A stretch of DNA of 64,000 nt from Methanolobus psychrotolerans. Lineage in GTDB: Archaea > Halobacteriota > Methanosarcinia > Methanosarcinales > Methanosarcinaceae. The stretch spans positions 62,001-126,000 of the forward strand of contig NZ_MBKP01000005.1 in the NCBI RefSeq assembly GCF_002243045.1, in the 5' to 3' direction. Below are positions 2,194 through 12,301 of the stretch, one piece after another. The position numbers and the translations under genes were made by a program. Under the pieces are notes generated by a model. That model had not been told where the DNA came from. It saw only the letters and a program-made list of their open reading frames with translations, and did not search any database. Each line of letters begins with the position of its first letter. Position 1 is the first letter of the stretch.

Positions 2194-2343
2194 CTATTTT
2201 CGAAGGAGTCCGCAACGGCTGTGTGAATATGGGGTTATTGGGTGGTACAGAACAGTACCGTTGCGGACAATGATGATTGCAGGAATCGGACGCTGCACCT
2301 GGACACCAGTATCATCAAAAACGGAGGTAATGGAGGAACTCAT
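2194..2343 (-). CDS. small hypothetical protein, 49 aa
   Basis: An ATG at 2343 overlaps the TGA of the upstream gene by four bases (ATGA) and the frame runs 49 codons to a TAG. The product has a hydrophobic core (IPAIIIVRNGTVLY) and a basic end. It fills the only gap in the operon and uses the same overlap style as its neighbours. The stop is TAG and the next gene continues in the same frame with no spacing. No function is assigned. Confidence 0.5.
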   Translation of the reverse strand: MSSSITSVFDDTGVQVQRPIPAIIIVRNGTVLYHPITPYSHSRCGLLRK

Positions 2344-10170: not shown

Positions 10171-11421
10171 ATGAAAAGTGCCATTATAGTGAAAAGAAAC
10201 GATCCAAGAACTGAAGATGAAGAGAATGAGCTTCAGATGAATGAACTCAGGGAACTGGCTGCAGCAGCAGATTATAAGATCATTGGTGAAATGGTACAGG
10301 CAAGGCATCCGGATCGGAAGTATCATATTGGCAGGGGTAAGGTTGATGAACTGGCACAGATGGTTGCGGAGCTTTGTCCCGATAAAATAATATTCCATAA
10401 TCCGCTCAGTACAATGCAGGTGTACAATCTCTCAGAGATATGCCGCTGCGAGACCATTGATAAGTTCCAGCTCATCCTCGAGATATTTGCAACCAGAGCC
10501 ACCACTCATCGTTCCAAGTTGCAGGTCGAACTTGCAAGGCTCCAATACGAGCTTCCACGAGCAAGAGCTATCATATCCATCCTTAAAAAAGAGGAAAGAC
10601 CGGGTTTTATGGGTCTAGGGGGCTATGAAGACTCCTATGCACAGGATATAAAGAACAGAATGATCCGAATTAGAAGTGAACTGGAGACAATTCTGAAGGA
10701 TAACGAATCCCTCCGGGCCCTCCGGCACTCCAGGGGTTTTTCACTGCTGGCACTTGCCGGATATACCAATGCAGGAAAAAGTACCCTTTTCAATGCTCTT
10801 GTGGATGAAGAGGTGCCAGCCCGGGACATGTTGTTCACTACGTTGCTCCCCACCACGCGTTCATTGAATGTGCATGGAAGGGAAGTCCTGTTAACCGACA
10901 CCGTTGGATTTATAGAAGATCTTCCTCACTGGATGATAGATGCATTCAGATCCACTCTTGATGAGATATTCCTCGCTGATGTTGTTCTCCTTGTTGTTGA
11001 TTCCTCAGAATCTCTGGAGATTATACGCAAAAAATTGCTTGTATGTCATGAAACGATGTGGGATCAATTGCAGGACGTGGCCATTGTGACCGTTTTCAAT
11101 AAAATGGACCTCATATCAGAAGATGAGCTGGCTCAACGCATGTTAAGTCTAGGGTATCTTGCCCCTAATCCTGTGATAGTGTCTGCAAAAACAGGATTTG
11201 GATTCAATGAGCTTAAGGTGCAGATAAGTGATCTGCTTCCAAAGTGGGAACGTATAAGTCTTTCTTTTCCGATGTCAGAAAAAGGGATGTCCATAGTTGC
11301 ATGGATTTTTGCGGAAGGCATTGTTCATAGTATTCATTATGATGAAAAAGTTTCAATAGATTTTGAAGCAAGGGACAAGATTATAAATAAAGCCATTTCT
11401 TTAGCAACAGAACTGTCTTGA
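10171..11421 (+). CDS. hflX: GTPase HflX
   Basis: HflX binds the ribosome and in bacteria splits stalled ribosomes. The N-terminal half (residues 1-185) has the HflX domain with the Gly-rich segment GFMGLGGYED; the G domain follows with G1 GYTNAGKST, G3 DTVGF (residues about 248-252), and G4 NKMD. Length (416 residues) is typical. A spliced-off long coiled linker is seen around residues 110-140. It is the last gene of the endA-DUF2209-hflX set and is followed by a candidate small RNA. Confidence 0.95.
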   Translation: MKSAIIVKRNDPRTEDEENELQMNELRELAAAADYKIIGEMVQARHPDRKYHIGRGKVDELAQMVAELCPDKIIFHNPLSTMQVYNLSEICRCETIDKFQLILEIFATRATTHRSKLQVELARLQYELPRARAIISILKKEERPGFMGLGGYEDSYAQDIKNRMIRIRSELETILKDNESLRALRHSRGFSLLALAGYTNAGKSTLFNALVDEEVPARDMLFTTLLPTTRSLNVHGREVLLTDTVGFIEDLPHWMIDAFRSTLDEIFLADVVLLVVDSSESLEIIRKKLLVCHETMWDQLQDVAIVTVFNKMDLISEDELAQRMLSLGYLAPNPVIVSAKTGFGFNELKVQISDLLPKWERISLSFPMSEKGMSIVAWIFAEGIVHSIHYDEKVSIDFEARDKIINKAISLATELS

Positions 11422-11490
11422 ATTGCATTATATTTGGCATTAATTTATTTTATTGTCAGCGATATATATATATGCGATAAGGTAGTTAGT

Positions 11491-11585
11491 ATATATGCGA
11501 ACGGGAAATCTTCTCTATTGTACCACCAATCCTATCCAACCACCCAACCACCAAAATTTTATTGCCCGTTCGCATAACTCCTGTT
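11491..11585 (+). ncRNA. candidate small RNA: 12-bp stem closing a 59-nt C-rich loop
   Basis: TATGCGAACGGG at 11494-11505 is the exact reverse complement of CCCGTTCGCATA at 11565-11576. The 59 bases between are pyrimidine- and A-rich, with no internal structure of note, and carry CCACCAATCC and CCACCCAACCACC (11523-11552), which could pair with GGTGG/GGTTGG-type ribosome binding sites. A TATA box (ATATATATATA, 11462-11472) lies about 25 bases before the stem, and a T run (11583-11587) follows. No open frame exists here. Promoter, stem and terminator together make a small RNA gene likely; no known family is recognised. Confidence 0.6.
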
Positions 11586-11626
11586 TTTAAAATATCTTTA
11601 TAAACTCTGAAGGCTATGGTATATCC

Positions 11627-12301
11627 ATGAAGTTTGACCTTCACGTCCATTCACATTATTCGAAAGATAGCAATGCCAGTCTAGACGATATTCTTGAATA
11701 TGCATCCAAAAACGGACTGGATGGTTTTGCCATATGTGATCATGATACTATAGAGGGCGGCATTGCATGTTCCAGAAGGGCAAAAGAACTGGGTTCAAGC
11801 CAGATAGTCATACCGGGTGTGGAGGTAAGTTCCTCTAAAGGTCATATACTTGTGCTCGGTGTCCGTGAACCTATTGATCCCGGATTAAGTCCGGAGGAAA
11901 CTATCAAAAGGGCACGCCAACAGGGTTCAGTTGTTATAATTCCTCACCCTTTTAAGATTACATCTCATGGTATTGGCTATTTGGAAGGACTTGATACAGA
12001 TGCTGTGGAGGTGCTAAACTCCCGCTGTATCACTGACGGTCCCAACAATAAAGCCAGAAAAGCTGCTCTGGAACTGGGACTTCCCATGGTTGGCGGAAGC
12101 GATTCCCATGAAGCACAGATGGTGGGCAGATCCTATACTGAAATTGAAACCGGATCCACGACTGTTGAAGGTGTGCTGGATGCTATACGCAAAGGTCATA
12201 CAAGTCCCGGGGGCAGAAAGACACCTGTATTATTTGTTGTCAAGCAAATGTTTGCCGGTCACATGAAAAAGATAGGTAAACGCCTTGGTAAAAGCAGGTA
12301 A
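11627..12301 (+). CDS. PHP-domain metal-dependent phosphoesterase, 224 aa
   Basis: The metal-binding motifs of the PHP superfamily are in order: DLHVHSHYSKDS (residues 4-15), CDHDT (38-42), the glutamate of GVEVSS, PHP near 107-109, and the final GGSDSH. The family cleaves phosphate esters such as histidinol phosphate or nucleotide intermediates; the substrate here is unknown. Length fits stand-alone archaeal PHP proteins. A possible start signal is weak, so a leaderless mRNA is conceivable. Confidence 0.88.
   Translation: MKFDLHVHSHYSKDSNASLDDILEYASKNGLDGFAICDHDTIEGGIACSRRAKELGSSQIVIPGVEVSSSKGHILVLGVREPIDPGLSPEETIKRARQQGSVVIIPHPFKITSHGIGYLEGLDTDAVEVLNSRCITDGPNNKARKAALELGLPMVGGSDSHEAQMVGRSYTEIETGSTTVEGVLDAIRKGHTSPGGRKTPVLFVVKQMFAGHMKKIGKRLGKSR

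What the first reader, a model, noticed from the sequence alone, without database searches (positions are those of the whole stretch)
11462..11587. Compact small-RNA gene with single-stranded anti-ribosome-binding-site loop
TATA box, 25-base spacing, 12-bp perfect stem, 59-nt unstructured loop with CCACCC/ACCACC tracts, and T run form a complete unit with no coding potential. The loop could block GGTGG-type ribosome binding sites, and the window shows that AGGTG sites are common here.
Basis: partly seen in the sequence, partly recalled or inferred. Interest (0 to 1): 0.65.

Follow-up and report, generated by a model that had tools for sequence, protein, structure and literature searches.

The report
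New archaeal stem-and-open-loop RNA family
A short stretch between two genes of a methane-making archaeon looks like a gene for a small non-coding RNA, a short stem holding an open, almost G-free loop, and it belongs to a widespread family that the RNA-family library lacks and whose job is still unknown.

Summary
The unit has a TATA box (11462-11473), a 12-bp perfect stem (11494-11505 / 11565-11576), a 59-nt unstructured loop and a T run. It is conserved in 27 of 27 genomes of the genus, which is Methanolobus. A covariance model finds relatives in 110 of 185 genomes of the order, often 2 to 7 copies each. Among 74 distinct members the 9-bp core stem shows compensatory changes, and G-U pairs outnumber A-C on this strand 12 to 2. 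A TATA-like hexamer lies at a fixed distance upstream in 71 of 74, against 15 of 74 on the other strand. No Rfam family matches.

The ribosome-binding-site idea fails its tests: loops are no better against Shine-Dalgarno or start regions than shuffled loops, and two specific candidates failed. All GCGAAC-stem members (25 of 41) except 15 Methanolobus hflX-linked copies and one other carry the published MsvR box upstream, which suggests redox control. The window's copy lacks it. Best reading: a trans-acting small RNA of a new family; target or partner unknown.

The parts
11462..11473 (+). TATA box of the sRNA promoter
   Evidence: Sequence; a TATA-like hexamer starts 24-38 nt upstream of the stem in 71 of 74 members, 15 of 74 on the antisense side
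11486..11501 (+). Degenerate MsvR-like box TTNGTA-N4-TGCGAA over the presumed start site and the 5' arm
   Evidence: Sequence; pattern in 30 of 41 members with the GCGAAC stem; resemblance to TTCGTAN4TACGAA (PMC3729527); binding untested
11494..11505 (+). 5' arm of the stem (conserved core 11497-11505, GCGAACGGG)
11506..11564 (+). 59-nt unpaired loop, G-poor, C/A-rich
11520..11547 (+). Most conserved loop block GTACCACCAATCCTATCCAACCACCCAA, identical in 11 Methanolobus copies and one copy of genus g11 among 74 distinct members
11565..11576 (+). 3' arm of the stem (conserved core 11565-11573, CCCGTTCGC)
11584..11588 (+). T run, probable terminator
   Evidence: Sequence; TTTT within 30 nt after the 3' arm in 47 of 74 members, 5 of 74 on the antisense side
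10171..11421 (+). hflX-type GTPase gene upstream; conserved neighbour
   Evidence: ORF; relatives in 107 of 111 family genomes; the name hflX is my reading of the sequence
11627..12301 (+). PHP-domain gene downstream, with its own TATA-like site at 11597-11604
   Evidence: ORF and sequence; the name is my reading of the sequence

Best explanation
The unit is a stand-alone small non-coding RNA gene, the hflX-linked member of a multi-copy family in Methanosarcinaceae and ANME-2 archaea. It is transcribed from its own TATA promoter into an RNA of about 95 nt whose two ends pair in a conserved 9-bp stem and present a long, unstructured loop with almost no G. The stem is the shared scaffold (supported by covariation). 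The loop is the variable, specific part: very different between paralogs and genera, nearly frozen within a genus. I infer that it acts in trans through the single-stranded loop, by base-pairing with a few specific RNAs (more likely) or by presenting U-rich and C-rich runs to an RNA-binding protein. Many members appear to be under redox control through an MsvR-type operator; the window's copy keeps only a degenerate element at its start site. Shown: gene architecture, conservation, stem, promoter strand, operator enrichment. Inferred: transcription, trans action, redox induction.
For: 27 of 27 Methanolobus genomes keep it; the own genome has two family members, A here and B at C106; model R1 matches in 110 of 185 order genomes, 17 of 27 genera; the pattern GCGARCGGG-N36-66-CCCGYTCGC occurs in 47 of 111 family genomes with 0 hits for the reversed control. 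Covariation over 74 distinct sense members: stem pair 3 is C-G 56 / U-A 18, pair 6 is A-U 46 / G-C 28, pair 2 has A-U in 2, pair 7 U-A in 1; G-U 12 against A-C 2. TATA 71 of 74 sense against 15 of 74 antisense; T run 47 of 74 against 5 of 74. Loops 5% G (224 of 4499 bases), mostly unstructured. MsvR box TTCG-N7-9-CGAA in 28 of 74 upstream regions; background 9 in 400 kb of own genome.
Against: No transcript evidence could be reached: the Methanolobus psychrophilus start-site tables are in supplements I could not open (one search gives main-text passages only). No conserved target was found: the 19-nt loop complement with up to 3 mismatches in 6 genomes shows 67 scattered matches besides the locus itself, against 44 for the reversed control; start-region tests do not exceed shuffles. 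Sense orientation in the 74-member set was defined by C>G in the loop, and members were found with a stem-based model, so pair counts lean towards the stem. MsvR-like proteins (my reading of V4R hits) were seen in 6 of 9 genomes tested but not in the window's genome, G006 or G138.
Confidence: 0.62

Rival explanations
1. Protein-sequestering (sponge) RNA: the C-run and U-run loop titrates a single-strand RNA-binding protein, as CsrB does with GGA loops in bacteria (recalled); paralogs differ in dose and affinity.
For: Loops are G-poor, mostly unstructured, with repeated runs (ACCCC in 15 of 20 clusters, CCCAA 13, TCTTT 10); tandem and multiple copies; no sequence-specific start-region pairing.
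Against: The 28-nt block of the A loop is identical across two genera, more than a simple run-binding protein would need; no partner protein is known to me.
Confidence: 0.25
2. Ribosome-binding-site-masking sRNA like M. mazei sRNA41: the loop blocks start regions of several genes in an operon.
For: C-rich loop; AGGTG and GGAGG start sites are common; the Methanosarcina hflX-linked loop is better than shuffles against the SD consensus (z_di -2.33); loop B ranked mtrC first of the called start regions.
Against: Loop A equals shuffled loops; mean z over 20 clusters +0.20; B-mtrC pairing is at shuffle level in 10 genomes (9 to 88 of 100 shuffles as good); three Methanosarcina loops against start regions of the ACDS stretch rank 13 to 203 of 233.
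Confidence: 0.2
3. Small-protein gene: the loop codes for a peptide MYHQSYPTTQP... in Methanolobus.
For: 23 of 27 Methanolobus copies have an in-frame ATG.
Against: The window copy and three others lack it; loop lengths vary without respect to three (14/5/8), C-termini differ; B and other-genus loops have unrelated sequence.
Confidence: 0.04
4. Mobile element or DNA element: the arms are terminal inverted repeats or a DNA operator pair, not an RNA stem.
For: Nearly invariant arms around unrelated middles; multi-copy; the 5' arm overlaps a box-like motif.
Against: Fixed outside promoter spacing, hflX linkage across genera, G-U against A-C asymmetry 12 to 2, T run on one side.
Confidence: 0.04

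Closest known systems
Methanosarcina mazei sRNA41 (Buddeweg et al. 2018; known here only from passages of the review PMC5867862 and a table in PMC9170634)
   Same: Intergenic sRNA of the same family of archaea; proposed masking of ribosome binding sites
M. mazei sRNA162 / sRNA171 (PMC3510493, passages)
   Same: Methanosarcinaceae intergenic sRNA
   Different: 191 nt, three stem-loops and a 39-nt linker, against one stem with a 29-86 nt loop here
MsvR regulon of methanoarchaea (PMC3729527, passages)
   Same: Operator TTCGTAN4TACGAA, exact in 7 and relaxed in 28 of 74 members, upstream of TATA
   Different: The published candidate targets in the passages are protein genes; the window copy lacks the upstream box; no MsvR-like protein was found in this genome
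Nine cold-box sRNAs of Methanolobus psychrophilus (PMC5378194, passages)
   Same: Conserved sRNA set with a shared motif upstream of the promoters, same genus name
   Different: Nine there; as a rule two family members per Methanolobus genome here; sequences not available
CsrB/RsmZ sponge RNAs (recalled)
   Same: Repeated short motifs in unpaired loops
   Different: C/U runs in one large loop rather than GGA in many small loops; partner unknown

Membership tests
Rfam 15 families | Score above a family's gathering threshold | tested here: not met
   0 in whole window; one local hit, E 0.075, opposite strand and other place, 23 bits against a gathering score of 45; 12 relatives, three hits, best E 0.3, all below gathering
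This sRNA family (model R1) | 9-bp terminal stem, G-poor loop, own TATA at fixed distance | tested here: met
   Window copy E 1.2e-18 (it was in the seed)
RBS-masking sRNA (sRNA41 type) | Loop complementary to start regions beyond composition | tested here: not met
sRNA162 | 191 nt, three stem-loops | tested here: not met
   Single stem against the description
MsvR regulon | TTCG-N7-9-CGAA box upstream of the promoter | tested here: not met
   Window copy: no upstream box, only a degenerate box at 11486-11501. Family-wide 28 of 74 have it
MsvR regulon | Binding by MsvR and redox-dependent expression | not testable with these tools
   Needs EMSA and RNA-seq
Small-protein gene | Reading frame kept by selection | tested here: not met
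Cold-box sRNAs of M. psychrophilus | Cold box upstream, cold induction | not testable with these tools
   The motif is in a supplement not open to me

The most novel reading that the evidence does not exclude
An order-wide RNA system of methanogens and ANME-2 methane oxidisers: one stem scaffold with interchangeable, almost G-free loops, amplified into paralogs and tandem arrays, one branch wired to the redox regulator MsvR and anchored beside the GTPase gene hflX, giving oxygen-shocked anaerobes a fast post-transcriptional brake.
Probability: 0.3. Interest if true: 0.82.

Novelty: new variant of a known kind. Interest (0 to 1): 0.64.

Why it matters
Few archaeal small RNAs have a family, a structure and a candidate regulator. 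This one offers all three as testable claims, also in genetically tractable Methanosarcina: a covarying scaffold shared by 17 genera, loops that look like exchangeable modules, and a published redox operator in front of one branch. If right, it is a handle on post-transcriptional control of the oxygen response in methanogens, with relatives in ANME-2, organisms that matter for the methane budget.

Tried and rejected
Generic anti-RBS role of loop A: start-region mean -12.17, CDS control -11.29, but ten shuffled loops gave -12.61 and -11.46 on average. The start caller favoured SD-like starts, which helps the hypothesis, and it still failed.

Loop B on the mtr operon: mtrC was the best of the called start regions (-37.1), but in 10 genomes cognate energies sit within shuffles (9 to 88 of 100 as good; 10 of the 27 Methanolobus genomes were used, those with both loci at hand). 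Rejected.

Identity with sRNA41 by ACDS pairing: not supported in one Methanosarcina genome, three loops tested. A 21-nt complement of the Methanosarcina-type hflX-linked loop gave one match in each of 4 genomes, at the RNA locus itself.

Peptide and mobile element: see rivals.

Papers on sRNA41, the 2009 M. mazei transcriptome, sRNA154 and a nitrogen-sRNA review were not held. None of the ten library searches listed a paper that I could recognise as describing this family; I saw listings and, for six papers, passages.

Rows dropped: one search gave 109 matches; I kept 74 distinct ones with more C than G in the loop, dropping antisense duplicates and identical copies. The 41 rows of A1 were picked from the 66 for diversity. 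One search was given 64 of the loci then held.

Full report
What is there. Between an hflX-type GTPase gene (10171-11421) and a PHP-domain gene (11627-12301), both on the + strand, lies a compact unit: TATA tract 11462-11473, stem arms 11494-11505 and 11565-11576 pairing 12 of 12, a 59-nt loop, and T5 at 11584-11588. The + strand folds to exactly that stem with an open loop (MFE -17.98, z -4.02, 0 of 200 shuffles as stable). The PHP gene has its own TATA-like site at 11597-11604. No Rfam match above threshold and no tRNA is in the window.

Conservation. The window is from a Methanolobus-type genome (relatives by name). The 211-bp region matches in 27 of 27 genomes of the genus. HflX relatives were found in 107 of 111 family genomes. 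In 33 stretches downstream of hflX in other genera (33 of the 40 fetched, the other 7 being Methanolobus) I count 21 with an intact GCGAACGGG-type stem (up to one substitution per arm), one degenerate copy (L085) and 11 without, two of these cut by contig ends. One of the 11 (L101, genome G078) has a copy just outside the fetched stretch. ANME-2-type loci L068 and L069 also have copies, with stem GCGAGCGGG/CCCGCTCGC.

A family of paralogs. Most Methanolobus genomes have a second locus, B, with the same stem and an unrelated loop; in the window's own genome it is at C106:28611-28718. In 8 of 10 B loci looked at, a gene starting M(K/R)(I/V)(V/L)IET(P/S)KYSF lies just downstream. Model R1, built from 41 members, matches in 110 of 185 genomes of the order, 17 of 27 genera, at E <= 0.001. 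Methanosarcina has mostly 3-4 copies, genus g7 one or two (the two in tandem), and ANME-2-like genomes up to 7. Genera g3, g6 and g8 gave none, and g10 one of eight genomes. Ten genomes searched again with fuller scoring showed further stem types such as GTGAGCGGG/CCCGCTCAC, a type not in the seed.

Stem. Over 74 distinct sense members, pair 3 is C-G in 56 and U-A in 18 with no broken case, pair 6 is A-U in 46 and G-C in 28 with no broken case; pair 2 has A-U in two, pair 7 U-A in one. In the nine core pairs there are 12 G-U and 2 A-C cells; on the opposite strand these would be A-C and G-U, so the pairing speaks for RNA of this strand. In the narrower seed set the core hardly varies, only one core pair has double changes (2 of 41), and the shuffle control is weak. 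Cells are not independent events, and members were found through the stem, so counts lean towards it; but the double changes lie at four different pairs.

Promoter. A TATA-like hexamer starts 24-38 nt before the stem in 71 of 74 members against 15 of 74 on the antisense side. TTTT follows within 30 nt of the 3' arm in 47 of 74 against 5 of 74. Upstream of TATA, 28 of 74 members have TTCG-N7-9-CGAA, 7 of them the exact TTCGTA-N4-TACGAA, the published MsvR motif (PMC3729527); background is 9 in 400 kb of the window's genome. Of 41 GCGAAC-stem members 25 have it; the 16 without are the 15 Methanolobus hflX-linked copies and one g11 copy. The GTGAGC and ANME types do not have it. A second degenerate form, TTNGTA-N4-TGCGAA, sits over the presumed start in 30 of 41 GCGAAC members, the window's among them. 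Proteins that I read as MsvR (HTH plus V4R) were found in 6 of 9 genomes, 5 of the 6 with the box near their start; none in the window's genome, G006 or G138. Who would bind the box in Methanolobus is open.

Loop. Loops are 29-86 nt, 36% C, 31% A, 28% U, 5% G (orientation was chosen by C>G, which inflates the C-G contrast somewhat, though the promoter side agrees). The first tenth is 51% U and the middle 50% C. They are mostly unstructured, B and the Methanosarcina hflX-linked loop having some predicted pairing. A 28-nt block is identical in 12 of 74 members from two genera. A peptide is unlikely.

Function tests. In 424 called genes (464 kb of the own genome), loop A does not prefer start regions beyond its shuffles. 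Over 20 loop clusters, complementarity to an SD consensus is at shuffle level (mean z +0.20), one cluster, Methanosarcina hflX-linked, being better (z -2.33). Loop B and mtrC looked striking in one genome but not in ten. Three Methanosarcina loops do not favour the ACDS operon. So the RBS-masking proposal is unsupported; specific targets elsewhere in the genome, about 85% of which I did not examine for start-region pairing, remain possible.

Reading. I commit to a trans-acting sRNA family with a shared stem and loop-encoded specificity, partly redox-controlled. I put the existence of the RNA gene family at about 0.93 and the trans action by base-pairing at about half; the stated confidence combines these. 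Shown: gene anatomy, spread, stem, promoter strand, operator enrichment. Not shown: transcription, target or partner, redox response. In M. psychrophilus 195 intergenic sRNA starts were mapped, nine conserved ones cold-induced (PMC5378194, passages); whether this locus is among them I could not see.

Noticed in passing
L150:1568-1680 (G000:C106:28611-28718): Second family member (B) of the same genome, with the exact MsvR motif TTCGTATACATACGAA upstream and a pyrophosphatase-like gene (my reading) just downstream.
   Followed up: partly
L068:3927-5018; L185:1501-2074; L094: Tandem copies of the RNA: three in a row in an ANME-2 MAG and in G138, two in genus g7.
   Followed up: partly
L189, L194-L199, L202, L204-L208: Methanosarcina-type paralogs with stem GTGAGCGGG/CCCGCTCAC and CCCC-rich loops, without the MsvR box; another promoter motif, GATAGCTATTTATA, recurs upstream of several.
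   Followed up: no
G000, G006, G138: No HTH-V4R (MsvR-like) protein among the V4R hits, although Methanolobus B copies keep the MsvR-type box; another regulator may read it.
   Followed up: no
G057-G064 (genus g10): The genus keeps hflX but seven of eight genomes lack any family member; G061 still has an MsvR-like protein with a box.
   Followed up: no
window 2208-2218 / 2258-2268: Another perfect 11-nt inverted repeat (GTCCGCAACGG) with a 39-nt spacer.
   Followed up: no
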